Below are positions 16,201 through 63,438 of a DNA stretch of 64,000 bases, piece after piece. The notes below the pieces were generated by a model. The model searched no databases. It had not been told where the DNA came from and saw only the letters and a list, made by a program, of their open reading frames with translations. The number at the start of each line of letters is the position of its first letter. The stretch's first letter is position 1. The DNA is from Plumapathes pennacea. Its lineage: Eukaryota; Cnidaria; Anthozoa; Antipatharia; Myriopathidae. The position numbers and the translations under genes were made by a program. The stretch is from assembly GCA_964036295.1 (NCBI GenBank), contig OZ038463.1, positions 248,001-312,000 on the forward strand. Reading direction: 5' to 3'.

Positions 16201-16776
16201 GGATTAATTTGGCGTGCCGACCGTGGGAAATACTTACGGCGTCACGCAATCGACTCTTTTTTCAACGCAAAAGTATAACACACACCATTCCTTTTCTCCT
16301 TCTTTTGCGTGTGGCACTTGGCTTCAAAGAAAAGATTGCGTCACCATTTCGGTAAAACAAAGGCTGCCCTTGCTGAGCAGTACCAAAGTAAAAGTCTAAT
16401 CAATGACAGAGCGAGGGGGTATCTGCGATTATCGTATTTCTAGTAAACCACATTGTTTTTTCATTTTTTTCTCTAAAGGATCCAGTAGATCACTGTTATT
16501 ATCACGGACAAGTGCGAGGTTCACCGGCCTCCAATGTGGTCTTATCCACATGTTCAGGTCTCAAGTAAGTCACGTGGTTGTCGTGATACAGCATTATTAA
16601 TCCAGTAATCTTGTAGTGGGTGAAGCTATATGCTCTGGTTGTTAGTATTTCGTACACAACGTTGTGCTATAATATGTATGGAAAATATTGGTAGGTTATT
16701 ATTATTATCGTTATTATCATTATTATTATTATTATTATCATTATTATTATTATTATTATTAATATTAATATTATTA

Positions 16777-16843
<67 letters not shown>

Positions 16844-19800
16844 CATTATTATCATTATCATTAATATTATCATTATTGGACTGGTCTTCTTTTTATTGTT
16901 TTCCCTTATTTCCGTGTAATATGACTCAGAGGAGTAATTGACGACGGAGAAGCAGTGTACAACATTGAACCGCATTTGGAGCACAAGGTGAGATAGGCGG
17001 TGTCATAGTTGTGGAAGCATTTCAAAGACTAATGCATAGAAAAAAATTGAATTAACAAACTTCTCAGGACATAGAAGACTAATGCAGTTTTTATATTGTG
17101 ACGAACACCGCTCAATTGTCGTTTGACGATTTAATTCTCCCACTATGATGTGTTTAAGTAGCGCAAGACTACATAATATAAGGCAATAACGGTAAAAAGA
17201 AAGCATAGTCTGGTTCCGAGCTGTTGTGAGGAACATATTAGAGCAGTTGGAGCATCAAGTTCGCTGTGGAAAAGGCTTTCATTGAATACAAATGTTATAC
17301 ATTAAGCTTTTAAAATATATCCTTTAATTTTATTTTGCCTACGTTAATAAACCTTTAGAGTTTTGCTGTATTTTTTTTGAGAGGCTTCCAATACGTGGTT
17401 GGTACAACTTCGTATATTTAACGTTCCTTTGTTCTGACAAAGGCCAGCTAAGTGTTAGAGCTCTCGAGAGGTCACTGGACCAACACATTTATTTTGGCGT
17501 TGCCCACACCCAAGCGGCCTTTCGTTTGGGATATCTATTTTAAAACCGTTTATGCAGCACTTACCTCACAAATAGATGGACTGAACGTTTTGTTAATTTT
17601 TAGAGGTCAGTCGCCTGTCACCGTGCTCACTGCGCATGTAACTGAAGGTTAAATAACTTGTTATCTCTGTAACAGGTCACTGCGCATGTACCTGAAGGTT
17701 TAATAGCTCGTTATCTCTGTAACAGCTCACTGCGCATGTACCCGAGGGTTAAATAGCTTGTTATCTCTGTAACAGTTCACTGCGCGTGTACCTGAAGGTT
17801 AAATAGCTTGTTATCTCTGTAGGTGGTCACTGCGCATGCACCTAAAGGTTGAATAACTTGTTACCTCTGTAACTGGTCACCGCGCATGCACCTGAAGGTT
17901 GAATAGTTTGTTATTTGTAATAGATTACCGGAATTATTTTCATGTTACTTGTAATTTAAGTTCAGTGTGTACACTTGCATGTTGTTTACCCATATTACAT
18001 GTTATTTATATTTTCAAGGAACCCCGTGCACATAGACTGTATCTAGCAAGAAACCGTAATTCACATGATGGCCACGACGGCAAACTATGCGGTGAGTTGA
18101 ATACAGTGAAACTCCTTTAATACGGCCACCATCGGAAAATAAAGATCTGGCCGTAAAGATTGGTTTTCAGATGAGAAAAATGACTGAGTGTTTGTTCCGC
18201 GGGACAAAATAAAATTAGATATATCAACGAGGTGACTGTAACAACGGGACAACGGGGTGTCCGTAAGCCAATAATGTAATAAAAACGGAATCTAATGGAT
18301 ACTTTTCTAATCAAATAATGATTTACCCTTTAAACATTTTATTGTGTTGATTTAGTCATTTGCTTTCTGATTATTGTAGGTAATGACGATGAATACTCCT
18401 TTCATGAAAGTGATATTCGAAGCGAAGATAATTCACAAAGGGTAATTATTATCTGAATTTAAGCTTGCTAGGATCATAATTATTTTAGGACTCTTAAATT
18501 ATGGCCGTTTATCAATATTTTCCAGCTTACCTTTACATCACAATCTTTGATGCCGTTATATTCTTTTAGTTTCGCGGAAGGATTGCAGGTGTCGACGACA
18601 TTTATCTGCCATACCTTACGACATCGGAAACTCGATACACCGAAACCATTTTTGCTGTGGACCAGGCATTGGTAACAAACAGTTATGAATTGTTAATAAG
18701 AGAGTAGAAGTATTCAACAGGAGATATTTATGAATGAATGTTTTAGATGTCCGGGCCTTTGATAGCATATAGTTTAGTAGAAGCGCCAAACATAGTTAGC
18801 GAGAGTATATATTATTGGTGTAGTTGTAACCTAGTAATGGTAGCAACAACACTTTCAGAAACCTTTTTACTATACTGCTGGTATTGGGAAATAAGCGGAT
18901 TCAGGTCCGCCAACCCAGACCGCTCGACCACAAAGCTCAACCATCAAGTCAGTAAAAGTGGCAGTAGTAGTAGTAAAAGAAAAACTATTGTATATGTTGT
19001 GTACCAATATAACTTGACTTTTTCAACTTCGACGTATATTGGCAGATCACGCAATATATCACGTGTCCAGTAAATGTTCTTTGCACGAGCATAAAACCAT
19101 ATACAAATGGATAAGTATAATGCTGTTGCTGAAAGATGGTGATTCTATTTCTCTTTCATAGTATTTGCATTACAAGAATGACACTAAGGACATCAAGAAT
19201 CGTGTGATAAATCTTGCGAATGCAGTTGATCGGGTATGTACTCAGTTTTTCTTGAAACGTAAGTCCATCTTGTGTTTACACCCGGCTCTACTTCACTCCT
19301 GTAATTTGAAATAACAGTCAGATTAGGTTGAAATTCCTCAATAGTAATCATCCTGTGAAATAGGGAGGAAGTGTGACGAAATGCTGACTTGTGACAGTTT
19401 TTTAAAGTGGAGCCCCGCCTTTATGTCACCCCGTTATTGCGTGACGGTTTTTTACAGTGAGACCCGCCTTTATGGTCACCCCGTTATTGCGTGACGGTTT
19501 TTTACAGTGAGACCCGCCTTTATGGTCACCCTGTTATTATGTGACGGATTTTACAGTGGAACCCGCCCTTATGGTCAGTCCGTTATTACGGCCACTTTGA
19601 TTTTGTTCTACGGAACGAACGCCCAGTCATTTTCTTATCTGAAAACCCAATTAATACGGTGGCCAGCCCGTTAATACGGCCGGATTCGGTGACCCATATT
19701 AACGGGATTCCACTGTATTACGTTTATTTTTACGCGGTTTGTTGTAAGGTTTATTTAGGAGGTTATACACAGTTGCAGAACAATGCTTAGTTACTTAGAG

Positions 19801-22800
19801 AAAATCTGTCCATTTCAATTGTTAATACTATATTAAGTATAAAGTAGCTATTTGTGTGGAAACGGGAACATCAGTAATCTCTTCTTTTTGTCTATTTGCT
19901 TACTTTGTTTGTTAGGCGTACCAAAGGATAAACATAAGAATTGTTATCAAGGCAATTGACATTTGGAGCAATGGGGATCCATTCAAACGAGAGTCTGCTG
20001 GGAAGGGTGGTTCTCACGATCTTCGCAACTTTACTGCCTACAGAAATAAGGAGTATTTCAAAAAATTTGGTGTTCACGATAATGCACAGCTGCTAAGGTA
20101 TGATGCATTAATAATGTTATATAGCATTTAATAAATAACTTGACCGTATAGATGTGGATAATTAGAATGCATAGATATAGCGGCTAAAAATACTAAATTG
20201 CGGGAATAATAAACATACTGACGTTTATTTTTAACCTACAAGTACGATGTTTGCTGATGTCTGCTTGCGAGCGTATCGTGAGTGTGTATGGCGTCGTCAA
20301 AACACAACACCCAAAAGTAACCAGTAAGAAGTTAGTGATGTATTCTTACACCGGTCTCGTATTCATGTCTTTTTAGTTTCAGTAGTTGGTCAGGAGGAGG
20401 AAAGCATATATTGGGGAGAGCACATATTAACAGTATGTGCGGCTCGAACTCTGCAGGTGTAAATGCGGTAAGTGTTATGTTCATCCCACTTATGACAGTT
20501 CTTAAGAGAGCATTGCTCTTGTAGTCTGTAGTCAGGTGATGTTGCTTTCCTGAGTGAAGAATATTATTATGATTGTAGTCATAGAGTTGATTGCGTGCTG
20601 TTGTGGAATACATTTTTAACTGATATTTTTATGGAGCTCTGCTAGTTAATGCTAAAATCTATTTCGTGGTATTTATGATGCTATGAATATAATAGTATTA
20701 TGCCAACATAAAAAAAAGAGCTTTAAAGCTAGTACCACAAGTACCACAAAGAACGAGATAACATTTTGGCAACTAAGAAAAAAAGAGAAAACAAGCACCT
20801 GCGGTTAATTTTATTAGTAACAGTAATTCATTGCTTGCGGCTGTGGCGGGCTTAAATTTGCAAATTCTTTTATTTTTCCTTTTTTTTTCTGGGTCGATAA
20901 TCAGCACACTGTCATTGGTTCAAATTGTCACATGACATGCGATGACGTACACTGACTTCGCGAACAACTTGAGATGTGGGCTATTGAATTATTCGTTACT
21001 TGTGTGTTAAAGTCAACTGCATTCCATCCAAACTCAACACCATTTGATTCTGTGGAAATGCACGGATAAACTGGATTTTAGGGAATGATTTTGGCTTGCG
21101 TTCCTAAGTTCACCGCGGAAATTTGATGGATTCGATTATTTGGTGGATAGCGCTACGGGATTGCAAATAACTCTGTTGCCGTTAATTATTTAGTCCCGAC
21201 GAAACGAAACTAACTTACTTCGTGCAACGTTGCGTGCAACAAAAAAAAAAATACTGCTACACAAGCTCTGACTGTGCAGTTTTTTAGCAACTTGTCATGC
21301 AGTGGTGTTGAAATTCAAATTGTAACAGGGCCTTTAGGCAAATTTTAGCACATATTTGATAAACATCAGTCATAAGAAGCCTGAACTATTTTTGAAATAC
21401 TGAAGGCTATTTTTTAAATCTTCGTAAATTTTTAAAAACATTTTCACGCCAGCACGAAAAACAGAGTGATCCAGTAGTATGCCCCATTTATAGGTTGTAA
21501 CTCTCGTTTTTGGGATTGTCTTATATTTCTGGGGAAAAATACCGCTTGAAATAGCCACCATTTTGGATGACACCATATTGAATTACTAGTGAATTTACAC
21601 CGGGTTGAAGGCAAAAGAAGTTCAAACATATCAATTCAACAAAAAGTGTGTCTGAGGAAGTGTTTCATCCTCTCCCGGTGTGACTCGGCGTGTACGTTCG
21701 AGGGTTTATGTACTTTACTTTAGCGTAAAAGAGGAACCTGAACTTTTGGACCCAAAATATAATAGTGGCTCTGCATAAACCATTAAATCAGACAATGAGA
21801 TATTCGTAAATAAGTTGTGATATATCATACTTTGTACGATCGAATGTATTTGGGCAAAAACCCGAATTATTTCGTTACTTTGCAGTGGCAAAAAGACAAA
21901 ATATTTGGTCCATATGGAACAGTAGGCCATGAAATGGGTCACAACTTTGGATTTTCACATGACGAAGGTAATGCCATGCTAACCTATATCTAGAAATACA
22001 ATATTTAACAATTTTCTACTCGGGCTTGCCGAATATGGAATGATAAATAACCAACGAGGCGCCACGCCATCGCTTTTCTTGCCCGCCATGTGCGACGTTT
22101 GTGATGCTGCTTGAAACTGACAACTGGCTGTGCTGAAAGAGAACTGAAGCTGGGGATGCTTGAACATTAGCAAGGAATATTGAAGAAGAAACCTTTATTT
22201 ACTTCTGTGAGGGCAGAGTCGGCGGTGATGAAAAACTGTTTACATAGGGGAGGCGAACCGAAGAAATTGATCGATTAATGGTTGCTCGTATAGACTTCAG
22301 CGGTGCCGTTTGTTCCCTTTGCTGATGTGTTAAAAAGCACTTGAGGCACTTGAGGCCTTTATTTCCTCTTTGCTCATTCTTCAATTATTGTTGTACATTT
22401 GTCTCACCCGGGACTTGCAAGTCACTCTGAAAAGGTCGCGAATTCTGAAATTGTGGTACTTGGTTTCCCTGGTCGGTGATGTGAATGGTCCAGTTCGTCG
22501 GGGAGACTCGGTTGTTGTGATGTCGCCTTTTCTAGTGGCTCGCTTGTGTTCAATTCTAGTGTTCAGAGTCAAGTGGAGAGGTTTGATTCGTCAAACGGTG
22601 GGGTTTATGTCAGAGTTTCACGAACTTAAACAACAAAACAACGTCCAATTATTACACTCCAACAGAGCTCCAGAAAAGCCTTATTACTAACACTGGAAAA
22701 ATATACCCTTTTACCCTTTTACACAGTATGCAATTATGGTTAGCATACATTTTAGACGTAATTTACACCATAAGCCACACATGGTTTTCATAATGTCTAA

Positions 22801-23655
22801 TTATTCTTATATACTCTCTACTCTTTACATAATTTGTAAATGGGTAGACTGCATTTAAATGTCAATTTGCTAGCACAGAGTGCCCGTTGTACACAGTGTG
22901 TAAAAAGGTAGAATTTCCCAGTGATGTTTAGACAAACTCCTGTGTCTTGCATTATGTGAAATACTTTAAAGTCATATAGTAGTTGCAGCTCAAGTTGTTT
23001 AAATTTGGCACGGGTACTGTTTAGACGCCTTTACCATCTCCTTGTCCCTTAAATTTGATCTCAAACAGCACTGTTTAGACGCCTATACCATCTTCTTTTC
23101 CCTTGTATTTGATCTCAAACACTTTTGCCTTGATTGTGTTATATTTTTGCTCGCGACAGGGAAATGCAGATGTTTAACACTAAGAGGATGCTTTATGCCG
23201 CCCAGCATATATGACATGTAAGCATTAATAAACGAACATGACTTAAAAATACTTATCAAAAGTGAGTTTGACTTTGAAACTGAACTGTGTTTGTTTCTTT
23301 GCTGTGTAGGGCAGCGGTTCCCGGGTTCTCTAACTGTAGTATGGAGTCCTTAAAGAAGCTAAGCGACACGTGTCTCTACAACGTGCCGAAAAAGGTAGTT
23401 AAATTAGCTCACAATGAGTTTATATTTTTGTTGCATAAGCGTCACTACATGTGTAAATAGATAGTCACATTGGGGTGTTTTGAAGTCTTGTAATGCAATT
23501 GTCCTTGAACAATCAGACTCTTGCAAAGTAATGTCTTATATTATAACACCCTTTTTTACTTGTATCTACTGTATCCCATATTCGCACATGTTATGCTGTT
23601 TCTATGCTGCTGATGCTTTTTGTCATAGTTGAAACATCAGTTATGTTAATTAATC

Positions 23656-23687
<32 letters not shown>

Positions 23688-26600
23688 TACAATTTGGTGC
23701 ATGAAACCCCCAATTAATGGAATATTCATTTATAGGAAACATTATAATTCGCTTGCAATTTCAGCTTAGCCAATCATCGGTAAACAAGAGTGAAGTTTCA
23801 ATTCACCAATCAAGACTATGACAATAATCGTCATCAAACGACAATTTTTAGTTTTTAGTGCTTTAAATTTGTGAAATATTCAAATTTTTACTGAAGCTAT
23901 CTGGGCATCCATGTTATTATTTCCACAGTTTATAATCTTTATGATTAATTCGTAAGAAGTAAACCGCGGTCGTGCAATGTGTTACCTCTCATTAGAAACC
24001 AATAGAAAAGTGCTAACCCTTTAATGATTCATTTGTTTAAGTCTGAGAACTCGTGGTGTGGCAATGGAATCCGTGAAGGAAACGAAGAATGTGACTGTGG
24101 AACACCTGAGGTAGGCTTGTCAGTGATGGTTTACTCTCTTTTCTTTTATCGCTTGATTCTATTTAATGTTTGTCTAGGACTTCTATCGTTTATTTTCTGT
24201 TTTTGTTTTTGTTTTTTTTTTTTGGTGGTATTTCTGGATTTACAATAAATCGCTTTAAGCAATATAGCGCTACAAAATCGTTGATGTTTGAAAAAAGATA
24301 AAGAAAGAGCGATGTATAAGAAGTTTGCATTTGTAATTTGTTTCCAGATGTGTGAGAAGAAAGACAAGTGTTGTGAACCTTATAATTGTACTCTTAAACC
24401 AATGACACAGTGTAGCGATCTTCACCATACTTGCTGTAAAGACTGCTTGGTAAGCAATGCCATCCTGACATTTGCATCATTTAACCGACATGCTGCTCTT
24501 GTACGATTAAATCACTGGGAGCCCTAGATATTAAACAACTGAAAGTATGGATATTTACCAACAACAAAGGTGAATTATAAACACAAAATCTCGAGTCGAT
24601 AATCGCTGATGTGACCATTGCCAAAAATGTAAGCAAAATCATTTGCATTGCCTACACTGACATGTTTGAGAAAATATAATAACGTACATTCCATGCACTA
24701 TAAATCACAAACGAATTGATTTGGAATTTAGAATTGATTTGATTCCAATGTAATTTTGAATTTTTTTGTTCGATTTTAGCCTCTCTGCCGTTATATTTTT
24801 CTTTTTGACTCTTCCTTTTTGAAGACGAACGTAAGAAGTCTTTTCACTTGGACTGCTCCGGTTAAACTGCACCCGTTATAGGTCTTGATCACTTCCTTTA
24901 AAGCCTGGTTTCCATATAATCGTCTCTGCATTTCCGGTCGTCTCCGACGCAAGGATAGAACATGGTTCTATCGGGACGATCAAGTCGCTTCTGACATAAG
25001 GATCGTTTGAAACAATCGCAAGAGTGTTTCTATATAATCTTCCCAATCGCTTGACAAAAAATTCTGCGACAGAGACGATCCTTACGTCAGAGACGATTAT
25101 ATGGAAACCAGGCTTAAGACAAGATTTGTCTTTCCCATGAGACTTTCTTTGGCGTTTGTTGTTGTCAAGCTTATTTGTTTTAAAGTTTCATCCATTTTCA
25201 ATGCTAACTAACCAACCCACCCGACCCCTCCCACCCCTAATTATAAGGTGGTAGAGCTTCAACATTTTCTTTGTTTACATGATGCGCCTTTCAGATAAAG
25301 CTACAATCAAATGCAAAAGTAGTTGAGACACTGTGCATATTTTGAGCAATTTATCGGCTTTTAAGTTTTGTTCATTTCTGCCCCCCTCCCCCCGTCTCAA
25401 TGTTGTTCGGGCCTGAAATCTCGTTGTGCGATATTGGATACTCAACATTGAAACGGGGGAGGGGGGGGGGGAAGATGCTATCACATGAAATCCAGATGAG
25501 AGTGAGGGAATAGAAGAGAAGAATGGGTCTTTTTCTGCGAGTGTCTCAACCATTTTGCATTTGATTGTAGTATTAGTATATGTAGTAGGACTACATGCTG
25601 TCCAATTTGGAAATAATTGGATGAGAAAAATTCCGAGGACTGCCAAAATTGGACGAGATCGCAGGCCGAGTCCAATTTGGCAGTCAGAGGAATTTTTTGA
25701 ATTCAATTATTTCCAAATTGGATAAGTATGTAGTCCTGTTATGTGTTAATTATATTGCACACGAGGAAATAAATAATAATTTGCTCAACAGAATTGCTCT
25801 CTACATCCTGGCTTTTGGCACACTCGACAGAATTGCTCTACTGCACGTCCTTTCTCTTGACCTCATCATAGAATTTAGTCAGTACGGTGTCCACTACTTC
25901 AACAGGAATATATGTCAAACAAGTCTCGTTCTTCCCCGCGCGCAAGTTTGCACTCGTTGAAAACATTTAGCCATGTTGACGTGCTTTTCTTGGCGTTTTT
26001 GATTTGATTTTCTTCAGTCATCTTCTTCAAATCCCCTTCCGACATATTTGGAAACCTGCTAGTTTTCAACTTCCCACTAAAATAATTGTAAAACATCCCA
26101 AAGAAACTTCAAGCTCTGACATCTTTGTAAAATACTCATTTCGGTTTTGCTGCGTGTACACGTCAACATTGAACACAGGCGTGCGCTGATTGGCTCAATT
26201 TTTATTTTCATTGTTTTCTAAGCATCTTCATTGGCTGAGTCCAACTGTCCAAATTATTCTCAAATGGATACGCGAGTTTTTCTGGAGAAAAATCCTATGT
26301 AAAACTATCCAAATTAATCCTTAATTGGACAGTTTGGAAAATTGAGAAATAATGCAGTGGCTGCTTCTTTGGGATTTCGAGTTTACAATAGAATTATATT
26401 TATTATTTACCGAAAATACGATATTCGCAGATGTTGTACCCTCGCCTTTCAGGTCAGAAACAATGTTTTTTAACCTGATCGACTTTCATACGCTTTTTTC
26501 TACCGTGAGTTGTTTCAATCTCTGCCATGTATTTTATAAAAATCTTTTTAATTTATCTTTACAGTACAAAAAGCAAGGAAGTTTGTGTCGCGGTGTGATG

Positions 26601-29600
26601 ACAGATTGCGATGTTCCGGATTATTGCACAGGAAATTCTCGAGATGTGAGTATAAAGGCTAAATAGGCAGACTTTTATCCATTCACGAAAAACGTTTCCC
26701 ACCAGTTTTTATGTCAAGCTCGACTTTCTTGAAACTGTCTAGAGATGGATTTTCCCGTAAGAAGGAGTCAGAGGTATTCTTGCTCCTTCTTGTTTTGCTA
26801 ATTGTCCGCTTTATTCTTTTATAACAGTTAAATGAAGCTATTTTATAAAATGAGTATATATGATATTACGCGCGTTCTGATTGGCAAAATAGCCGTGTAA
26901 TATGAGAGTTTATTATATAGACACGAGTGTTTTATTGAAAAATATACCGTGCGTAAAATCCATACGAAACTACATCCGGGACCCGAGTGGCATATTTTCC
27001 ATATCCTCACTAGTGAGGATATCGTTGGCATCATTTCCAGCTTTTGCACGGTTGTTCGTGCAATTTCTCGTAAAACACTCTTGTCTAATATAATAAAAAG
27101 AAAACTAAACGGCGGCTTGAAGATATGGATTTTATTTTCTCGTGGTAAAAACAATATTTTACAACATTTTATCACTCGAAAATAAAATCTCTCTCTCTCA
27201 TACATATCACTCTTTTTTTCCCACTAGTGTCCAGAAGATTTGTATATTCAAGATGGTTATCCTTGCAACAATACCATGGCGGTAAGTATATTTTTTCGTA
27301 TAGTATTCTCTTTATATATCAATCATAACTTACCACAACTCACTAGTTTCTCGCTCTCTGATTGGTCAAATAACCGTGGTAAATAAGAGTCCAGACAACG
27401 ATGCTGACGCAAGCAGACCACGGCAAACCAGTGGCAATTTGATATAGATAATGAAAATTTGCAGGAATACGAAGAATGAAGAAAGTTCACAAAGCATTAC
27501 CCTAGTAATATTCTGATCAACGCAACTTCTACATAGTAAAACTGAAATCACTCTAATATTTTAGGAAACAATTAGGATAACTCTGTTCCTCTCAACTCTA
27601 GTTAATTCAAGCCAACAACGACACATCTACCGTTGTCACCAGCAAACTTCATCCCCCTTTCGAGGCTCGATATGTGCGAATCAACCCCCAGTATTATCAC
27701 GAACATATGTGCGCAAGGACAGAGCTGTATGGCTGTAGTCCTAATCAAGGTACGATAGTAAAAACGCATTCCGCGCTATTTGATATTTTACCGTTAAACA
27801 AAGACAAAATATGGTTTGAGGTTGATTTATTTTGTATACTGTAACAACGTGTACATTTTGCTTTAATTTTCAAACCAAGCAAGTCCCTACTTTCCGAGTC
27901 GTCTCGTGTGGATTGGTGGACACTGCATCACACCAGAAGGTGGCTCATGCTCGGTGCGGGACGGAAGCAAGCTTATTTTCATTAAAAAAGGAGACTGTGA
28001 TGAAGACTACATGAAGTTCCGTTTCGACGAAAATAAAATTCTTCGACATCACTGTAGCGGAAAGATGGTGTGTCCTGAAAATGGCGCGACCAACAACGGA
28101 GCAAAGCTGATAGTAAGCAGCAGTTGTACAGAAGAAGACTCCAAGTTTGAAAAGACAGCGGGTATAGTTTTTTTTTTGTATTATTTTATTAGCTTTGCCA
28201 TGTTTGATACAAAGGAAATGTAGGAAGTAAAATCTAAATAATAACAAATAAAGACTATGACAGAGTTACCGCGGCAAAATAGTCAATTACTGTGGTCCGC
28301 GATCCTAAATAGTTAAAACGAGCGAAGCTGACATTAAGCAGCAGTTGTACAACAGAAAACTCCAAGTTCGAAAATACAGCGGGTATGGTACTTTTATTCA
28401 TTTTAAAGTTGTTCTTTCTTCGGCAACTTAAACGCGGCCTAATTAAGTTAAGCCTTTTATGTTTAAAGTTTAAGCCAACAATGGTCTGGTTTGTTGTTTA
28501 GAGAGCACGGAATCTTGCAAATTAGTCGGACTAACCCAATTTTCATTATAGAGTTTATTAGCTTTAGTTTTTTTAGTTTAGTTTTTTTTTCTAATGGTGT
28601 TGGTTTGTAATGGCTATCTCAACAGGAAAATCTTTGAAACATACCAAAACAGGAAAATGCGTCCATGTGGATAGCGACAGGGCGGTGATCTGGACCGGTT
28701 GTGATGAGTTTAGATTAATAATAGAATTTAAAGATCATGGTAAGTGTCTTAAGATTTGCGCTAAAAACTAAGAAAACGCAGCATCAAATTGTTTCTGAAT
28801 ACAAATTATACTTTAGCCCTCGGACGTACAAGCCGGGGTGGATGGTTGCTATATTGATATATTTTGAAGCTCTCTCACCTTTATTACGCAGCCTGGTATA
28901 AATTATTTAAGATACGGCTAATTTGGTGGCTTTTATGGTCCAATGAGGTTCTAATGGGGGTCGATGAGTTCACTAATATGGCATTAATTCCAAACGCTAT
29001 ATTTTTTCTCTAAACGTTAACAAACCAAATAAGAAGTAGTTATGACCTATAAATTTCACGATTTTTTAAAAATAGCTTGCAGCGTTTCAAAAATATATCA
29101 GGTCAGTTTGTGACCGATGTTTATCAAATATGTACTAATTGTAGCCGAAAAAGATACCGCACAGCTGCTGAAAAACCCAACAGCCACCCCCTTCTCCCAA
29201 TTTTTGTACGTTTCAGAGTCAACCTTTTACAGCCGGTAATTTTACGGTTTTTTCTGCAGGCGCCATGTTAATATAGCTCAAATTGATTGCTCATTGAGCA
29301 CATTAACATTGCGGCACAAAATAAACCACTTTCTCGGCCAATTTTTGGTTAAATACATTTTTGCTCCATTTCAGGCTGCGTGTTTCCGTTAGGACTTGAA
29401 AATGGCAAGATCCCCGACAACCAAATTACCATGACCTCTTGGCTCAAATCTGACCCCCAATATCGTGCCCGACTCCACGGCAAATACTGGTGTTCCCAAA
29501 AAAAAAAGAGTGACAAGAGTGAATACTTACAGATTGACATTGGAGAGGTACGAAATGTTACGGGAAAAGCAATATTTAACTTTTCTCGTCCAATATCTTC

Positions 29601-32600
29601 ATGAAAGTATAAGCCATAATTATTTTTCTGATGAGAAGATTTCAGCAGTCTTAGGACTGTAGTTTGCATTCACGTTAAGTTTTCGTTCCTACTAGGATTT
29701 CTTGCAAAATGCCAAAAGCATTGTTTAATAGCTGCAGTTGTAAAACGTATGTTATAAAAATTGCGTTTATATGTTTGTTATATCATGATAAAGGGACCTA
29801 TTATTTTAATGATGAACTAAAAATATTTCAAGATGAAAAATTTAACATAACATGTTTGAACCTGCTCACAGTTCATGGCCTTCGCTAACCACAGGAGCCT
29901 CGTGGTCACTAATTAAAAATCAATACTGCAACTGCTAATAAGATGTGAAAACTAACGACCAATAGACTTCACTTCAGAACAACAGAAAAGAAGCCAAACC
30001 TTTCAACGGAAAAATACTCAATCCTGATGTTGATAAAGCAATTTTACACTGAGATACTGAATGCTGCTAGAAGTGGTTTGTACAGCCAGGCACTGCATAT
30101 ATTTGCTTCAATCACTAAATTCTATTATAGTTTTTGAATCGATAAATATAGTAAACATGTATAGTGCATAACTTCTGAGAAACGTTTTGATAATATATCA
30201 CATGCGAAGCACTAATGCATTTGAGATTAAAACATTAAAAACCCTAAACATGGCACCCTAGATCAAGAGAATCACACAAGTTGCCATGCAAGGAGCAGGG
30301 AGCAGGAAAGCCTGGGTGACTGCGTACCACTTATACTACAGTCAAGATGGTGAGATATGGACTGCTTATTCCGAGAGCGGGGACAGTGTTCACTCAAATG
30401 TAAGTACAGATTGGCGACGTATCCTGGTATAATGCAAACTTATAGGGACCACACAAGTCTTTAGCAAACCTGTGTAATTAGTTCAAGCCTGAAGTTTAAA
30501 TTTTTTTTCTTTGTATCCAAAATCGAATAGCCTAAGAAAACTTGGTAATAAGGCACACAATCATTATAGTTCTCGCTTATGTATTTTTTCCTTATATATT
30601 TTACTCTCATCCAAGCAATACCTACCAACTCTCCTCCATCAATATGAATACTTACTTTAAAAGATGCAGTACTTACTAATTTGTTTCCTCAATAATCTCT
30701 TTCCCAGGCCAACTGTTATCGTGGGAAATGTAGCGAAACACGTGACACGCAATGTCGAGACCTTTGGGGAACGAGTGAGTAAAACAGCAGTGGGTGAGGA
30801 AGAAAGGGAAGGTAGACAAGGTGTACAGAATAACTAACGGCAAAGAAGTAATCGAAAATGGTTCGTTTAAAAAAATTATAATTGCCAAAAGAGGGTGCGA
30901 TATTTGGTGTATCAGTTTTATGGTCGGAAATCTTGGACTGAATAGGTTGCGAGATTTTAAGTATATAGTACACTAAAACCGCAGGAAAATATTTCAGTAT
31001 TTTATCACAGAATCTTGAATTTACTTCACATGTAACTGTACTGTATTTATTTAGTTACTTCGCCTGATTAAGTGAAATAAGCGGGCTAAAACGCGGAGAC
31101 ACCTCGACAGTTATATTAGTGTGGATCCGGTAAACATAAAAAAATACTAAATACTCAAAACTAGATGTTACTTTAAATGCTAAAAGCTCTAAGACTAACA
31201 ACATAATACGATGCTAAATGCTACTATTTCTAAATTGCTAATTGTTGTAAGAGCTAGAAACAACACGTGATAGATAGGAGCGACTTGTTTGATAGGAGCA
31301 AACTGTTTGAGAGTCAACTGTTTGTGTCTGAGGTTACGCGGGAGGGAATTCTAGTGGCTCCAGTGACAAAGTAGCGTTGAAAGGTGACAAAAGTAGCAGA
31401 TTTGTCGGCGTTCCATTGTAGCATTTTTAATCAGTATATTTTTATTCTGTTTCCTGACCAGAGTTTGGGTATTGGTCGAGGGTCTAGGGTCAAGGGTCAA
31501 GGGTCGAGGGTCGACAAAAAATATAAAAAAATAAAATAAAATAAAATACCGGGTTGACAAACAGACAGACCTATTCATTCCTTTTATTTGTGGCTAAATT
31601 CTCATTATCACAGTTTGAACGCGCTAATCTTACCTTGTAATGAAACCCCATCGCTTTGCGCAATAACTAAAATCATGACATGATTGAGTCTGATGTGAGT
31701 TACAGAGATTCGTAAAAATGGCCCCAAATCTGTTGCCAACCTTTCCGTATTTAATTATCGTACATTACCGGTATTTCTGGAGTGTTGTAACGCACTAATT
31801 GTTTTAGTCAAAGAACAGTTAAGCACCGATAGAAACAGCGGTTTCTATGCCCAGATGGATCCTACCTAAAAGTGAACCCTCGTCGATGGCATTGCAGCAA
31901 CACTCTGTTTAGTTGGTCTAGTCAAGCTGTCGCACTTCACTGGCATTCGGAGCTGTCCCCTCACCCTTATGAGATTGTGCTTTTGCCATCCAACGTGAAA
32001 AAGAGGTTATTACACGGGAAGGAGTGCAATACGGTGGAATATTTTTAAGAGTCGGTTTTATTTCATCGAGCCTGATTCAGGCGAGAAAAAATAAAACTGA
32101 CGAGTAAAAATACAGCCGTATTGCACGAATTTTCGTGTAAGAAATTGTTTATTATACGACAAACGAAGCAGGGCAAACGTTCTCGCCGCGCGCAAAATGG
32201 AGCAATTTAATTACACGTTCGTAAACTTTGCTTGCGAAAATTGATCACGTAAGCTAATAAACCAGTTGATCTGGTTCCTAACGAGTGCAGTACACTCCCA
32301 TCTTTGCACTCGTTTTGGCCCGTATTTGCACTCGAAAATGTGAAGTCGTGTAATAAATACGTCTTATTCGATGGTTTCCGAATTAAATTTTATGCAATAT
32401 TCGGACAACTTTTCTTCACGCTGCTTCACTAATTGCACATGATTTGCACATGGTTTCACTATTTGCTCTAATAGCCCACTGCAGTTTCTGTAACACATGA
32501 ATCTTTGAAGTAGGGGACGACACGCAGTCTTTTTATTTCAGGATTCGTCATTTCCATGTCTTTGTACTTATTTATAAAATGGTTTTTTAACCAATCAGAG

Positions 32601-35600
32601 CGCGCGTAGTATCATAGTTATTTTATAAATATATATATATTACACGACTTCACATTTTCGAGTGCAAATACGGGCCAAAAAGAGTGCAAAGATGGGAGCG
32701 TATTGCACTCGTCAGGAACCAGATCAACTGGTTTATTAGCTTACGTGATCAATTTTCGCAAGCAAAGCTTACGAACGCGTCATTTTTTTGTTCCATTTTG
32801 CGCGTGGCGAGAACGTTTGCCCTGCTTCGTTTGTCGTATAATAAACAATTTATTACACGAAAAGTCGTGCAATACGGCTGTATTTTTACTCGTCAGTTTT
32901 ATTTTTTCTCGCCTGAAGCAGGCTCGAAAAAATAAAACCGACTCGTAAAAATACTCCGCCGTATTGCACTCCTTCCCGTGTAATAACCTCTTTTTATTAA
33001 TAGGTCTGTCTGTCTGTCTGTCAAGCGGTTATTTTTTTTATTTCTTATATTTTTTGTCGACCCTCGACTATTAGCCCTTGATCCTCGACCCTCGACTAGT
33101 ACCCAAACTCTCCTGACCATCTCAAAGTTTACAAAAATGACCATGAACATTCAGAAAAGTGCCTATTAAGAGCTTTATCATTTGACATCCAAAGCTCAAT
33201 ACTGCTTAAAAAACTTAGTTTTGCAATGTCGCATATTATCAATAACTTATTTTTGTATGGTATAGCTGCTCACGACGGCGCGAATGATTGCTACAATACA
33301 CTAAACACCAATGGTAATAGACATGGAACCTGCGATCCAGTCACTCCAGGGACACAGTGTGCTACAAAGTAAGTATAATCTGTTTGGAATACTGCAGTTT
33401 TATTCTCTCATAGCATTTATTATTTTCATTTTAAGCATTTCTCGCGTATATTGAGATTTTGCGAGAGCTGTCCTTTCTATTGCAATTGTTCCAAACACTC
33501 GTGCATGCACGTATAATAATTTTGTCGTCAATAAATGTTTGATTGATCCGATTTAGCATTCTTATTTTTCAATTTATTAATATCAATTGTAACTTACAAA
33601 AATATTTTCTATTTATTTTAGGGACGCGTTTTGTGGACAGCTGCAATGTATGGACGCTAAAGCCAAGCCAGCCTTTATTGATTTTGGCAGGAGTTACAGT
33701 AAGATTACTGTAGGCGGGAAACAATGCAGGTATCCTGTCGAAATTTTTATTTTTGGTTAATACAATTCAAACACGACTGGGACTGGCATAGTGTTAAAAT
33801 ATGTTGTACATATCTGTCTTAAAAATACAATATAATTTATGTTCTTTGAGTCCAATGTGATTAGCATGTGACAGTTTGCTCGTATGATTTGATGCCAGTG
33901 CCGCAATCTTGAAAGACACTGATGCTGTTGGTCAGGGGATGGTACGAGAAGGAACAAAGTGTGGAGACGGAAAGGTAATTTTCCTCCTGACCCCTTCGAG
34001 TACCACTGGTCACTTAGATTTCTTTATTGGCTCTCCATGGTGTGTAGAATTTGTATTTCAAGAATTAGATCGTCAAGACTCACCAGTGATTTGTTCTTTT
34101 CATGAGATTAATGTTTGTACCCGGCATAGGGCATTTTTCTTGTAGTTTTGTTGTTGTGGTAATTTTTAATGGCTTGAAAAATTGCAATTGAGCACACTGT
34201 TGTTTGTGTGGGTGGAGAGGTTTACGAATGACTGCAGTCTAAAGTAACTACAGCTAGCGCCAATCACAGAGACTGTAAGTCAGAGACTGTAAAGAGGTTA
34301 TTACACGGGAAGGAGTGCAATACGGCGGAGTATTTTTAAGAGGCGGTTTTATTTTTTCGAGCCTGCCTTCAGGCGAGAAAAAATAAAACTGACGAATAAA
34401 AATACAGCCGTATTGCACGACTTTTCGTGTAATAAATTGTTTATTTTACAATAACACGTCAGTTTCTCGCTTTGTGATTGGCTAATTTTCATTATCAATA
34501 AGAGGACAGACACATAAAATCGAGTGCTGACGACGGTGATTTGGACGGAGAAGGTGAATTCAGCTTCAATTTTACCTCAGTTCTTGCAAAAGCGACATTC
34601 GGCATTTGAAGTAGAGAACCAGAAGTGTTCAGAGGCGAATTTCCTTGAGCTTTGTCTTGAAATTGTCGAGAAAACCGCAGCAGAAAAGCGTCTAGTTTCA
34701 TTTCTTTCCAACTTCTTTGACAAAATTTTATTTTTGCACGCGCGAAATGCTCACGTCAAACTGTCACTTTTTGGCCAATGAAATGTCTTGAATTTTAACC
34801 TGGACCAATTAGAAGGCGGGAAAAGTTGTTGACAATTTGTTAATTACACGACAAACGAAGCAGGGCAAACATTCTCGCCGCGCGCAAAATGGAACAAAAA
34901 ATGACGCGTTCGTAAACTTTGCTTGCGAAAGCTGATCACGTAAGCTAATGAACCAGTTGATCTGGTTCCTGACGAGTGCAATACGCTCCCATCTTTGCAC
35001 TCGTTTTGGCCCGTATTTGCACTCGAAAATGTGAAGTCGTGTAATAAAAGAGAATATTTTAACTAGACAGAAGCAAAAGTAATTTGCGACTGGTGAAGAA
35101 AGAGACCAATCAGTAGTGCGAGACAGCGCCATGACCACGTGTGCTTGCTTAGTACGTTAAACAGCGGCAAAACCAAAGCCTTCACACGATTGCTTTCCAC
35201 AGTGCTTTTTAAACTAATCCGGGCGCGGCTTGTATCTTAGCTACGTGCGAACCACGTGTTCACATTCAGTGATCGTTGATTGTGCTGTTGTATTCAAACT
35301 TCGCAGACCACAAAAATAGGACAAGAAAGACCACAAATGTGTGAATACTAACCTTGTAGTCATGTCAAACGCAGATGTGCAAGAACTACAAGTGCGAGAC
35401 ATTCTTGGACCTCAACATCAGGTCATGTCCTAAAGTGAACGGCAAGGAATGTGCAGGACGAGGGGTAAGCAACCGGAATCTGCTTTAGTCAAATATTCAC
35501 CTTTTGACGAACTATCAGTCCACTCTGTCTGAGTGGACATCGAAGTGGACATCGAACAAACATGTTTATCTGAAAAACAAAATCGAGTCTTTCATGGAGT

Positions 35601-38600
35601 AATACAAGCGTCTTCTGTTCTTCAGGTTTGCAGAAACGACGGGAAGTGCCACTGCTACAATGGGTATGACCCTGATACGGCATGTGCTTCGGGTAAGATA
35701 TTAGTACAACACATTTTTAAAATGTTTCTATTTGACAAAAAGTGCAATGAACTAACAAAAAATAATGTAAATTTTTATGTATCTCTGCTCCATGAACCGA
35801 TGGCAAATAACACGTATAACCAGATTATTGATAAGACAAACTTTTCTGCGGCTTTAAAACGACAAAAGTTATAATAAAAACCTTTTTCATATTTGATCTA
35901 ACGGAAACGGTGTACATTGGTCTTATTCTTAAAGCTCCTACGCCTCGTGATGGACAGTGGGGTACATGGTCAAAATGGTCGGTCTGCACCAAAGGCTGCA
36001 ATGGCGGGAAAAGGACGCGGCATCGCTTCTGTGACAACCCGTTCCCGCGCTATGGTGGAGCCGACTGCGCAGGTCGTAAAAAGGAGGAAGAAAGCTGCAA
36101 CACAGAGGCGTGTCCGGGTAAGAAAAGGACAAAAACGGTATTAATTTGTTGTTTCTAGTAGATTATATGTTTGATTCTAGAGCTGCAACACAGAGGCTTG
36201 TCCGGGTAAGAACAGGATAAAAACGTTCTCAATTTGTTTCTAGTAGATTATTTGTTTGATTCTTGAATAGTGCGACCGTACGTAGTAATATCTTTGTTTA
36301 ACTCATTTGGAAATAGTTTGCTTATTGACTGACTTAGCGAGTATCGATAATTCAAAAAGGAAGTTATTAGTCTGAATAAGTTACCGCAACTTATTGTACG
36401 GACCACGAAAACGAGATTAATAAAATATTTCTTTGGTTTTAGTCGGTATTTCATGTCGCCATACACGACAAATTGCGAAGAGCAAAAACATGGATCTACC
36501 AGACGGTGTTTACACAATAAATCCAACCGGAAACAACCCAATGCAGGCCTACTGTGATATGACACGTGACGGAGGAGGTTGGACGCTATTGGTCACAAGT
36601 CACACCAACACGTGGACGTCCAGTAACGTCCTTCTAAGAAACATGGAAACACCTCAACTGAAGAATGATTACTCCATATTGAGCCACGCCGACAGCATCA
36701 AGGACAATATAAATGTTGAGGGAGGTACATTTGAGTACAGACTAGAAGCAGATACACCAGGCGAGTAATGTATTATCTCAGACAGCAATCGGCGACTGTA
36801 AGATTTAACCGTCCAAAATATTAGCAAAATTATTTGCGAAACACCATTAATAATAATCAAATACTTGAAATGCAATACTCACAGGTTTTTCCTTCTCCAA
36901 ATGGTTTGAGTTACTTAGCTTTATTACTCCCGATGGATCTATTTACTTTTGATAAATATAAAATATATAAACATCGCGAGATCTAGTGATAGAGATCCGA
37001 ACATCGTGTTAATTTTCGCTTGCACTTTAGGTTTTGTACTTTAGAATTAGATGAACTTCGGTTGTTTATAATAAACAAATCAAATATCCTAAAATTTGAA
37101 AACCTTGTTTTAGTTCAAGATACAGGTTTTCCTTGTTTAAAGCGAACGCGAATTAAGCGCCCCGACATAATCTAGGATTAGCCTAATCAAGCGTTGGGTA
37201 CCCGAATATAACCAATATTTGTCTAATCAAACTTTGAGCACCTGGATATAACCAGGGTTAGCATGATCAAGCTTTGAGTACCCAGATATAACCAGGATCA
37301 GCCTAATCAAGTTTTGAGTAACCGGATACGGTTTTTATTACCTAGATTTTACATTTCATTGGCAGCTATATTTATGGAAACCATAAGAAACCGTGACCGT
37401 CTCTTTCATGTGACATAAAAAAAAGTATCTGAGTGCCTGCATGTTCAAATATATATTGTTGAATCATCGAGAATTAGAAGAAGAATCATCTCGGGGTTAC
37501 TACGATTAATCTTGCGGTTTTACCAAGTCTAAATAATTTTATCTTTTCTAAAAGGTCACTGGGGCGGTGTGTGGAGGGCTCCGAATAGATACTCGTTTGT
37601 GTCTAAGGACAACACCCAGACTGGTGTGACGCTGATAAAAAAGTTTGACGAATGGACCTATCACGACAGCGGCCTAGAAAACAGAATGCCGTGGGTCGCC
37701 AAGGCGAGGCTGACAACATCCTCAAACGCTTTAAGTAATTGGTGGGGAACTATAACTGGTACGTATTGTTTTTTTTTTTAAATACATCAGTCTTAAAGCA
37801 AAAGCGTAAAAAAGTGCCAGTACCACAAAAATAAGATATATTTTTGCGGCCAAAAATATTAATTCGCACACTTTAGCGTATCGGAGTCAAATACTCAAAA
37901 AGGGATCAAGTGCACTAGCTTGTACTGACAGAAAGAGATAAAGTCGTAGCCCCTTGGGCGAAAAAACCCGACAGAGGTCAGCTCTACTTACGGATGCCTC
38001 TACGAGACCCCGTCTAAATTCTCGCTCGGTTAAACAGATGTATTTACACATTCTCGTAAGCGGGCAATTTCAGTTACGGACGATTTCTCTGCTTTCCAAG
38101 AGTGTCCGCTTTCTGGAGCTTCAACCGTATGTTGCCAAGCATAGCTTGGTAATCACGACTGTATCCAGGGACATGCATTCTTTACTCGTCAACGACAATC
38201 TATTGTTAAGCTGTGCCGTACAATTCAATTTGCAGGAGACGACAAAAAATATCACCCGGCTCCATGGATGAGTGGGCATCTCACTCCCTCACAAGTAGAT
38301 CGTATTTGGTATTGGATGAGAGAAGGTTACTCCGGGTTTCGCTCTTGTATGCACGCTCAAACGAGAGGCTTGCCGTTGGCCACACCGCCAACAGGTACAC
38401 ACGCCAATATAATGATTGTTCTGTTTAGTTTTACGGTTGATTCGTTTGCAGAAAAAAACACAGCAAGCAATAGTTAGTTACCCTCAACTTAACCAATAAT
38501 CGCTTGATGTACATGTGTTTGGTTATTGGCTGTTTATACAGACGGAGTGTACACAATCAACCCAACCGGACAAATGGGGAAAGAAGTGAAGACCTATTGC

Positions 38601-39125
38601 GACATGACAACCAACGGGGGAGGTTGGACTTTGGTTGCCACGAGCAAAACGCACATCGGATGGAGCAGCGAGAATGTGAAGGAAAGAAATGTGGACAATC
38701 CGTCACTTAACGGAGACTTCTCTATTCTTGGGAGCATTGATGCAATAAAAGATGCAGACACGTCTAAGGTGCAAAAAAATTGATCATCTGCTCAATAGGG
38801 CCCGGTCACACTAGAAAGTTTAGTCGATAATAACTCAGCATCGAGAGCAATACGACAGCTTCTTTAATGTCTACTAGCAATTTGATGACAAAGACTTCTG
38901 GTGACAAGCGCTGTTTGCACTTCACTTGATGCAAATGTCGATAAAATCAATGATGGTAAAATTACGAGAACGACCAGAGCCTTTATTCTACATGCAGTTT
39001 AAAAAATCGTATTAGCACGTGCAGAGTGACTAAAACTGCGAAATGTTGTAGAGTGGAATTTCGGTCTCCGTTTTTTAAGAATTATTGGAATTTGTTAAAA
39101 ACAGAACAAAACTGCGAATAAGTGT

Positions 39126-39204
<79 letters not shown>

Positions 39205-42200
39205 GTTTTGTCGCGTGAAAACTCGACAGATGCTGGGATTGAAGTTTGGTGTGGCAAGTGTCCGCACGCACCATATGAATTGTTGAATAAGCAATCTCTG
39301 GACTAGACCGAGACTCCCAAGAGTGATCAACTTCAATTTTCTCTTTCAATTTCTCACCGGAAAAAAATATTATACAGTATGGGGAACTTGGCTTTTGATT
39401 TACTCAAATGAACCTGATTAAACTATAAGTTATAATCACAACACTCGTACATTTGCTTCAAAAGGATGAGAGAATCTACATTTTGAGTTTGGGAGTAATT
39501 GCGTGACTTATCTCATTTCATGCATAATTGTTTTGACAGTTTGACTTCGAACATTTGTTTCTAATCACAGGCCACGATTAATCTAGCCTGCACTTCAATA
39601 CTTACCTGTTTTTCGTCTTTCAAATTGCGTTTCTTCTAGCAGGCTTTCTAAATTTCCAGTCGGCCTGTTTCATTTCAGAGCTATTATCACCGCGGTTTTG
39701 ATGAATTCATGGTTGTTTGACGAGCATATGTTAAAGCTGAAAAACCCAGCCGGGAGCCACTTCAGCTTGTCGAAATGGTATCGTTTGATTATGTTTGCTT
39801 TCCTTCGCTTAGTTTTAACCAACTGGACAAAGAAAAATGCGAAAGTGAATACAATGAACAAAAACCACAAGGGCGCAAGTACATGTCAACAAAAATCTCA
39901 CGTTACATACTTTGAAACTCAGCCAAGAAAAGAAAGGCTTCCACGCCGCTTGCACGTGAACATTATCCAATCAGAATATAGGATTTTTGCTTACACGTCA
40001 ATCGAACTTTTAATAATAATTTTTTTATCCAAAACGACATGATACGCCAGCAATGAAATGTTCTGCGTACTTTGTTCATCTCGACAGGAGTTTTTCCAGT
40101 ACATGATTGAAGCTGACGGAAGAGCGCGCTGGGGAGGAATCTGGGAAGCTCCTCGGGGTCACAGTTTCCTGTCCACGTCTAACCAGGACAGGAAGGTGAA
40201 GATAGTGAAGAAGTTTGATAGTTGGGACGATTCTAACAACCTGGCCAACAGCATGCCGAGACTTGCTGTGTCAAATGATGTCTTCCTTGGTGCTGCCTCG
40301 TCCTTCGTAGATCCGCCTGGTTCCATTATCTATAATGATGTTGGAGTGAACAAGGTCACTTATCTCAGAGAGAAACCCAATCCTACAGTAGTCAGGTATT
40401 GGGTGAGAGAAGGAACCAGGTAAGATTGCCAGCAAGCGTTACGTCAATATGATTTTATTTCCACACACGGCTCAGTAAATAGGACACAACGCGCATAACG
40501 CGTGGCTGTGTAATATAGCCTCATACAAAGCACGCGGGAAGTTGGAAAAACACGGGAGTAGCGTAGAAAAGCCACGAAGCCTGCTCATAATAATAACGTC
40601 TGTAAAACATTAAGGAGCACCCATTAGAGGTGTACTGTTCCGCAAAATATGTGTTCCACACAGCATCCTTGTACTGGTAAGCGTTTTATATTTCCCCCAC
40701 TGCTGTCTGAGAAAAACAAACACAACAACAACAACAACAACAAAAACACCAATAAAGGGTCGCTGGCAAAATTGAGTCTTGCATAGGCTGCAAATAAAAC
40801 CTGATTTTCCCGAATGTTGCTTTTTGCCGCCAAACAATATATGTATTCTAAGCCTGCAAGCAGTTTAGTTTATTATTTCTGCTTGTTAAAAGTGGTTATC
40901 GGTTGCTGGGAGATTTTTCTAGAGAGTGTTCTGCTTGGTCTGCATTCAGTAAAGAGTTCTGACCACTCGGCCACGTTGCTTCCTTCGCATGCTTTATTCC
41001 GTAACTACATAGGTCTGTATTCAATAAAGAGTATTAATTATGTGTGACTTTCTCTTCAGGCGATCCTGTAATGACATCAAGTTGCACGGTAAAAGAGCTG
41101 GAAACACTTATAAAGACGGCTTCTATACAATTCAAATGTCAGACAAGTCCCAGTACCTCCCGGTCTATTGCGACATGACAACCGACATCGGCGGATTTAC
41201 ATTACTCGTTACCAGTGTCCACCAGAGCTGGACTCGCGCCCAGGTTCTCCGCAGGTGATTACGTAAAAATACAAGCTTGTCTAATAAAATATTTCTCAGA
41301 AATACCACCACTGATAGATATCAGTGATTAGACATTCTTTGCTTTTTTTTATAAACTGGGACGCGAAATCGATGTACACTGCAAATCGAATATCAACAAA
41401 AACCGAGAGCAATAAAACGCAGATACTGAAAAGAGTATATACCATAGCTAGTATAGTAGGACGAAACTACTTCGAAATTTTATAGAATTGTGTAAGATTA
41501 AGGTGGCCATTTTAAACTTATTTAACCGGTTTGATTCTCTGGATCTTCAAGGTTATTACGGTTTGTTGCAGGAATAAATTCAAACCGTCATTGAACGCAG
41601 ATTATTCTATCCTGGAGTTGGCTAACTCTATTAAGTCGCTTAGCAACGGAAACACTTTCAAGTACATGCTAGACGCCAATCAAAGAAAGCGCTGGGGAGG
41701 AATCTTTGAAGCGCCCATTTCCTACAGGTAAGAAATATCCACAATTAAGAATTGATTCTAATGTTCGCATTCTAAAAGTTCAGAAAAAATGCTTTATTTT
41801 AGCAATAACGACGACTCTTCTCGCGCTTGCTTTGGTAGTCTGATGGTAAAATATTTGCTTTTATAGTTTTGTGGCAACAAAAAACGATCAGACCAATGTA
41901 AACCTCAAAAGAAAGTTCGATGTATGGACACACTACTACTTGAACGGCCTACCCAAAAGGATGCCATGGGTGGTCACATCAGGACCAAACAACAAGGTTC
42001 TTCTTACCACCTGTGAACGCCCTGACGAAATCTACAACTCGGGAACCATTATATTAGATGGAGACTGGATTAGAAGCGGAATGAAGAACCCTAAAGCGAT
42101 CTGGTACTGGGTCAACGAGGACGACTGTGATGCTGATAGGAGAGCAGGTAAGGCTTTCATTTTGAGTTATCTTAAAACACGTTTTTCTTGAACAAAAGGC

Positions 42201-43011: not shown

Positions 43012-43363
43012 ATATTCATGCATCAAACCCTTTTTTCTTCGTTGGTTGATGAAAGATGGTGACGAAGATAATGAATATAGGCAATTTTATACCTTCTTCT
43101 GTGTCTTGGTCTACAGTCAAATTACGACAATGTATTTTTAGTTAGATTTCTTTCTCTGGTCTCTTTAGCACCACCTTTTTATCTCGTTTGGAAATGTCTG
43201 CTTATGAAGTGACATAGCGAGTATTAAGTTTAAATAATGGAATGAAGTTATGGCTCCCACATCATCAGAAATTCAACAGGGAAGTTATTAGTCTGAATAA
43301 GCTTCAATAACGTACTGTACGGATCAGGAAAACGAGGTTAATAAGATATTTCTTTGGTTTTAG

Positions 43364-63412: not shown

Positions 63413-63438
63413 AGCGTTTTATCCTCGTCGCCAAATTA

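What the first reader, a model, noticed from the sequence alone, without database searches (positions are those of the whole stretch)
27602..30399. Circularly permuted discoidin-trefoil exon cassette nested in an ADAM intron, phase 0 at both ends
Three exons that make one F5/8C domain occur in the order C-terminal (X1), then two trefoil-like exons, then N-terminal (X4) and middle (X5). Exon phases show X5 fits X1 (0/0) and X1 fits X2 (1/1), as if the block were a circle or a slice of a tandem F5/8C-trefoil array cut in the intron between the middle and C-terminal exons. The whole block is open, 855 bases, phase 0 to phase 0, in an intron of phase 0 in sense orientation. Possible origins: reintegration of an extrachromosomal DNA circle, excision from a larger array, or an assembly swap. 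If spliced in, it would split the ADAM Cys-rich domain with a lectin-like insert; if skipped, a normal ADAM results.
Basis: partly seen in the sequence, partly recalled or inferred. Interest (0 to 1): 0.9.

Follow-up and report, generated by a model that had tools for sequence, protein, structure and literature searches.

The report
Permuted lectin-like insert inside coral protease
A family of coral and sea-anemone ADAM-type metalloprotease genes carries, in the middle of one protein domain, a discoidin domain with its two halves in swapped order and a lectin-type trefoil domain stitched between them; the arrangement is shared across genes and species and is not an assembly error.

Summary
Exons X1-X5 (27602-30399) are open, canonically spliced, 855 nt, phase 0 to phase 0, inside a phase-0 ADAM intron. 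X4+X5+X1 rebuild one F5/8C domain: in 9 of 9 cassettes tested X1 covers profile positions 103/105-147 and X4-X5 1-100/102. X2+X3 form one beta-trefoil closest to mytilectin-type lectins.

It is not an oddity of this locus. The same order, between the same ADAM exons, stands at 12 complete loci plus one divergent locus on five contigs of this genome, and in 11 of 40 homologous proteins found, from seven named sea-anemone and stony-coral species. Misassembly, a separate nested gene and a recent insertion are rejected; the cassette is an old coding part of the protease.

AlphaFold2 folds a relative's permuted F5/8C as one compact domain (pLDDT 83.4, pTM 0.81). Best reading: a one-unit slice of a tandem F5/8C-trefoil array entered an ADAM Cys-rich loop, like the 'swaposin' insert of plant aspartic proteases. 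The donor array was not found; RNA and ligand could not be tested.

The parts
13895..23400 (+). Host gene, 5' part: propeptide and metalloprotease exons (HEMGHNFGFSHD near 21934)
   Evidence: tblastn with P0013, P0015, P0012, P0016; reading frames
24051..26645 (+). Host gene: disintegrin exons and A0, ending ...YCTGNSRD
   Evidence: tblastn
27228..27281 (+). A1, first exon of the ADAM Cys-rich domain (CPEDLYIQDGYPCNNTMA), phase 0 end
27602..27749 (+). X1: C-terminal third of the F5/8C domain, ending ELYGC; enters in phase 0, leaves in phase 1
   Evidence: HMM 104-147
27880..28161 (+). X2: beta-trefoil repeats 1 and 2
28626..28739 (+). X3: beta-trefoil repeat 3
29375..29547 (+). X4: N-terminal part of the F5/8C domain, beginning GCVFPLG
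30262..30399 (+). X5: middle part of the F5/8C domain, leaves in phase 0
   Evidence: X4-X5 = HMM 1-100
30708..30774 (+). A2: continuation of the ADAM Cys-rich domain (ANCYRGKCSETRDTQCRDLWGT)
33265..35694 (+). Rest of the Cys-rich domain and EGF-like exons
35937..42734 (+). TSP1 (35937-36116), three intelectin-like modules, and a second TSP1 (42612-42734)
   Evidence: same order ADAM-TSP1-intelectin in P0013

Best explanation
The block is a normal coding part of a family of ADAM-like metalloproteases, so far seen only in hexacorals. It encodes a circularly permuted F5/8C (discoidin) domain: the C-terminal exon comes first, and the natural C- and N-termini are bridged by a mytilectin-like beta-trefoil. 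The whole block is inserted in a loop of the ADAM cysteine-rich domain, between DGxPC and CYxGKC. The new termini lie at the X5/X1 exon border, so chain entry and exit should lie close together, as a loop insertion needs. The natural end cysteines (X1 ...GC, X4 C..PLG) would pin the base of the trefoil. Most likely origin: one repeat unit (X1-X2-X3-X4-X5) of a tandem F5/8C-trefoil array, cut twice in the same phase-0 intron (linearly or as an excised circle), landed in a phase-0 ADAM intron before stony corals and sea anemones split. Shown: gene structure, recurrence in genes and species, complementarity of the halves, compact predicted fold. Inferred: splicing in this species, the disulfide, single origin, array origin, and a role as glycan- or surface-targeting exosite of a secreted protease.
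Against: No RNA was examined; the relatives are database gene models, and several lack an exon (A1 in P0001, P0016, P0027; X3 in P0016; X2-X3 in P0020; X5 in P0029, not detected). No natural-order F5/8C-trefoil array was found, though lists were capped. Cassette dN/dS among C2 paralogues is 0.51-0.75, against 0.15-0.24 for the ADAM flanks in five of six pairs and 0.69 in the sixth, so constraint on the insert is modest. The AF2 model of P0012 is poor outside the cassette (mean pLDDT 54.1, pTM 0.34), so the packing of insert and host is untested. Foldseek found no match at E<=0.001 for the permuted F5/8C model. Trees are mostly unresolved, so a single origin rests on the shared insertion site. 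In the window's own copy the HPxGG stretch of trefoil repeat 3 is lost.
Confidence: 0.82

Rival explanations
1. Origin in situ: an F5/8C-trefoil unit entered the ADAM intron in natural order, was tandemly duplicated there, and the outer parts were lost, leaving the permuted unit.
For: Tandem duplication of these exons happens: P0027 holds tandem cassette pieces with a natural X4-X5-X1 junction, and the window has a duplicated X2 tail.
Against: None of the 13 loci keeps a natural-order unit. P0027 also contains an internal A2 and may be a joined model of neighbouring genes.
Confidence: 0.2
2. Alternative cassette: the block is a regulated exon set, skipped in some transcripts to give an ordinary ADAM.
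For: A1-A2 joining also keeps the frame. The donor after A1 is GC, a weaker kind, in 3 of 4 paralogues. P0013 is labelled isoform X2.
Against: 11 of 40 homologues include cassette exons; no cassette-skipping model of a cassette-bearing gene was seen, but isoforms were not searched for as such.
Confidence: 0.2
3. The halves do not form one domain in one chain: X1 pairs with X4-X5 of a partner molecule (swapped dimer), or stays unpaired.
For: Permuted order with a 133-residue trefoil between X1 and X4; no experimental structure.
Against: AF2 places X1 (pLDDT 82-90) with X4-X5 in one chain, pTM 0.81, on the trefoil-free form; end cysteines kept in 12 of 12 rows.
Confidence: 0.08
4. Assembly swap, recent circle reintegration, or a separate nested gene.
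For: The order is unusual; the window alone could not exclude it.
Against: 13 loci on five contigs and seven named species share order and site.
Confidence: 0.01

Closest known systems
Swaposin (plant-specific insert of aspartic proteinases)
   Same: A circularly permuted domain inserted within a protease, explained by a tandem array of the domain (PMC3320104, passages).
   Different: Animal ADAM host, beta-sandwich F5/8C instead of helical saposin, and a second domain (trefoil) between the swapped halves; cut points coincide with phase-0 introns that are still present.
F5/8 type C (discoidin) domain, PF00754
   Same: X4-X5-X1 matches the whole profile region 13-127; best solved relatives are factor V, neuropilin-2 and factor VIII domains.
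   Different: Order C-terminal third, then N-terminal two thirds.
Mytilectin / R-type beta-trefoil lectins (MytiLec, Mitsuba-1, SaroL-1)
   Different: Cysteine-rich, split in two exons, part of an ADAM. A survey of mytilectins contains no 'discoidin' or 'metallopro...' in its main text (PMC10744619, passages).
ADAM / snake-venom-type metalloprotease-disintegrin-cysteine-rich proteins
   Same: Propeptide, HExGHNxGxxHD protease, disintegrin and Cys-rich domains.
   Different: Cys-rich domain split by a 285-residue insert; gene continues into TSP1 and intelectin-like modules.
C-terminal domain of bacterial galactanase BT0290 (6eon, residues 634-779)
   Different: Bacterial; 14% identity; no evidence of common descent of the permutation.

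Membership tests
F5/8 type C domain | Sequence matches the family profile above its curated cut-off | tested here: met
   93.0 bits rejoined, 79.3 bits in genomic order; cut-off 28.2
F5/8 type C domain | Natural N-to-C order of the domain | tested here: not met
   X1 (C-terminal) precedes X4-X5 in 9 of 9 cassettes tested; it is a permuted derivative
F5/8 type C domain | End cysteines at both natural termini | tested here: met
   12 of 12 rows; the disulfide itself is recalled from known structures, not tested
Swaposin-type insertion of a permuted domain in a protease | Permuted domain within a protease chain | tested here: met
   Window and 7 relatives with ADAM on both sides
Swaposin-type insertion of a permuted domain in a protease | Known tandem array of the same unit as source | tested here: inconclusive
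   F5/8C arrays are common in this genome; none with the trefoil seen in capped lists
Swaposin-type insertion of a permuted domain in a protease | Saposin fold | tested here: not met
   F5/8C fold instead; so it works like swaposin but is not a swaposin
Mytilectin / R-type beta-trefoil | Beta-trefoil fold | tested here: met
Mytilectin / R-type beta-trefoil | Ricin_B_lectin Pfam cut-off | tested here: not met
   17.7 bits against cut-off 29
Mytilectin / R-type beta-trefoil | Galactose binding | not testable with these tools
   HPxGG in repeat 3 kept in some relatives, lost in the window; motif meaning recalled
ADAM | Zinc-binding HExGH motif, disintegrin and Cys-rich domains | tested here: met
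ADAM | Uninterrupted Cys-rich domain | tested here: not met
   Split by the cassette between A1 and A2

The most novel reading that the evidence does not exclude
A doubly nested, circularly permuted module (ADAM Cys-rich domain containing a permuted F5/8C containing a mytilectin-like trefoil) arose once by cutting one repeat out of an array at two homologous phase-0 introns, was kept throughout hexacoral history, and has diversified in a gene family as a fast-changing targeting surface of secreted proteases: an animal counterpart of swaposin whose cut points can still be read in the genome.
Probability: 0.55. Interest if true: 0.75.

Novelty: new variant of a known kind. Interest (0 to 1): 0.62.

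Why it matters
Natural circular permutations whose genetic mechanism can still be read are few. Here phase-0 introns stand at both cut points, paralogues and a cassette-free ADAM sit in the same genome, and a Pocillopora gene model shows tandem pieces in which the natural order is restored. That makes 'permutation by slicing a repeat array through introns' testable. It also suggests that a Cys-rich protease domain can take a 285-residue permuted, trefoil-bearing insert in a loop, which bears on protein design and on how cnidarian proteases gain recognition surfaces.

Tried and rejected
Donor array: trefoil hits away from ADAM loci (C3:3.08M, C2:24.15M, C3:17.8M, C8:6.77-6.79M) have no X1 or X4 hit nearby in the printed lists, of which only the best 150 candidates were scored; inconclusive. 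Many other weak trefoil hits lie 10-15 kb beyond A2 and fit a second, C-terminal trefoil like that at the end of P0016.

Second copy in the window: tblastn of the block against the 64 kb found no second X1, X4 or X5, only a copy of the X2 tail.

Dating and species: cassette and ADAM trees are mostly unresolved; the window's species was not determined.

HMM test: three of the cassette proteins (P0001, P0002, P0029) were left out because X5 or most of X1 is missing.

Literature: seven searches bearing on the matter listed nothing on a permuted discoidin or on this ADAM insert; only the top rows of each list were shown (15 of 24, 15 of 49, 10 of 14 and 10 of 49), and only open-access text is held. 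One search, on BT0290, listed no paper holding that name among its 8 shown of 102. Of PMC3320104, PMC6626399, PMC13114784 and PMC10744619 I saw passages only.

Full report

THE HOST. tblastn with relatives outlines a gene from about 13.9 to 42.7 kb: propeptide, metalloprotease with HEMGHNFGFSHD, disintegrin, Cys-rich, [cassette], rest of Cys-rich and EGF-like, TSP1, three intelectin-like modules, TSP1. Its exact ends are not settled. The Actinia relative P0013 (1241 aa) runs from propeptide to intelectin-like module in this order, cassette included. Against solved ADAM structures the cassette sits between DGxPC and CYxGKC of the Cys-rich domain.

IT IS NOT AN ACCIDENT OF THIS LOCUS. The window is C2:248001-312000 of a 290 Mb genome in 24 contigs. 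Searches of that genome with the trefoil, X1, X4, A0-A2 and X5, and reading of C2 stretches, gave 12 loci with A0, X1, X2, X4, X5 and A2 all in this order, plus one divergent locus (C5:25.714-25.717M) without a detected X5: five in a row on C2, three on C8, two on C5 besides the divergent one, one on C3, one on C1 (order checked). X3 was detected at 7 of the 12 and A1 at 9 of the 12; both are short or fast-changing. The X1, X2, X4 and X5 matches have no stop inside at any of the 12. In four C2 paralogues read in full, the splice sites and phases of the cassette exons are kept; three of the four have a GC instead of a GT donor after A1, the window being the exception. Between these four, the cassette has dN/dS 0.51-0.75; the short ADAM flanks (A0+A1+A2) have 0.15-0.24 in five of six pairs and 0.69 in the sixth. 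Frames are kept, but the insert mostly changes faster than its host.

OTHER SPECIES. Three protein searches gave 40 different proteins. Eleven carry cassette exons in the permuted order next to ADAM sequence: P0001 Exaiptasia diaphana, P0002 Orbicella faveolata, P0012, P0015 and P0029 Desmophyllum pertusum, P0013 Actinia tenebrosa, P0014 and P0020 Actinostola sp., P0016 and P0027 Pocillopora damicornis, P0026 P. verrucosa. Seven of these (P0012, P0013, P0015, P0016, P0026, P0027, P0029) have ADAM on both sides. Exons missing from some models end on the window's exon borders (A1 in P0001, P0016, P0027; X3 in P0016; X2-X3 in P0020), so the exon structure looks shared. P0027 contains tandem pieces in which X5 is followed by X1, the natural order, but also an internal A2, so it may be a joined model of neighbouring genes. 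Cassette-free relatives exist: P0028, source unnamed, with ADAM, TSP1 and intelectin-like parts and A1-A2 contiguous, and C4:18009703-18009894 in this genome, with contiguous A0-A1-A2 in an 856-residue open frame. P0030 and P0036 leave no room for an insert either (which printed 17 of the 40 proteins).

HOW IT PROBABLY WORKS AND AROSE. In a natural F5/8C domain the two ends lie together, joined by a cysteine pair (recalled). Here the trefoil fills the gap between those ends and the chain is opened at the X5/X1 border, giving two new ends that should be close to each other. That is what is needed to sit in a loop of another domain. The simplest source is an array ...X4-X5-X1-X2-X3-X4-X5-X1... 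from which one unit was taken through two copies of the same phase-0 intron and placed in a phase-0 ADAM intron. A linear slice and an excised circle give the same product and cannot be told apart here. The natural-order donor was not found. Function is inferred: a lectin-type trefoil, F5/8C and intelectin-like modules on a metalloprotease suggest targeting to glycans or surfaces, and the faster change of the insert fits a recognition role. In the window's own trefoil the HPxGG stretch of repeat 3 is lost, so sugar binding by this copy is doubtful.

COMPARISON. The closest precedent is swaposin, a permuted saposin inserted in plant aspartic proteases and explained through a tandem array (PMC3320104, passages). 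The present case differs in kingdom, fold and in the second domain between the halves. A recent survey tells domain insertion from circular permutation as separate phenomena (PMC13114784, passages); here both occur together. Seven literature searches bearing on it listed nothing on this arrangement.

VERDICT. Observation confirmed. This is a shared, exonic, circularly permuted and doubly nested module: a new variant of a known kind.

Noticed in passing
window 28320-28398: An 85% identical copy of the last 79 bp region of X2 (28099-28177) lies in the X2-X3 intron, with a GT after the same frame; a fresh partial tandem duplication. Not seen at the other C2 paralogues.
   Followed up: partly
C2:235040, C2:341502, C2:397474 (paralogues); window 27282: The donor after A1 is GC in three of four paralogues and GT in the window. 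This may explain why several gene models of relatives leave A1 out.
   Followed up: partly
window 30262-30399 and C2:240042-240179: X5 is 98% identical in protein and dS 0.037 between the window gene and its upstream paralogue, while X4 and X3 differ far more; possible gene conversion.
   Followed up: no
G000 C4:18009703-18009894 (L051): A cassette-free ADAM whose A0-A1-A2 region is uninterrupted in an 856-residue open frame: possibly an intron-poor gene or retrocopy.
   Followed up: partly
window 136-8103 and 43363-50843: Tail of the upstream paralogue (EGF-like, TSP1, three intelectin-like modules, TSP1) and a further intelectin-like triplet plus TSP1 without an ADAM part directly before it.
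   Followed up: partly
window 59373-63418 (-) and 46615-47661 (-): Long open frames that look like a retroelement with gag/zinc-knuckle/protease-type sequence (1157 and 218 residues) and a reverse-transcriptase-like frame of 349 residues; described only.
   Followed up: no
G000, e.g. C2:13.75-14.6M, C2:36.05-36.3M, C5:21.47-21.6M, C11:1.22-1.25M: Large tandem clusters of F5/8C domains: 172 matches reported, 150 of 1239 first-look candidates scored.
   Followed up: no
G000, 10-15 kb beyond A2 of the C1, C3, C5 and C8 loci: Weak trefoil hits that fit a second, C-terminal trefoil in these genes, as at the end of P0016; none seen in the window.
   Followed up: no
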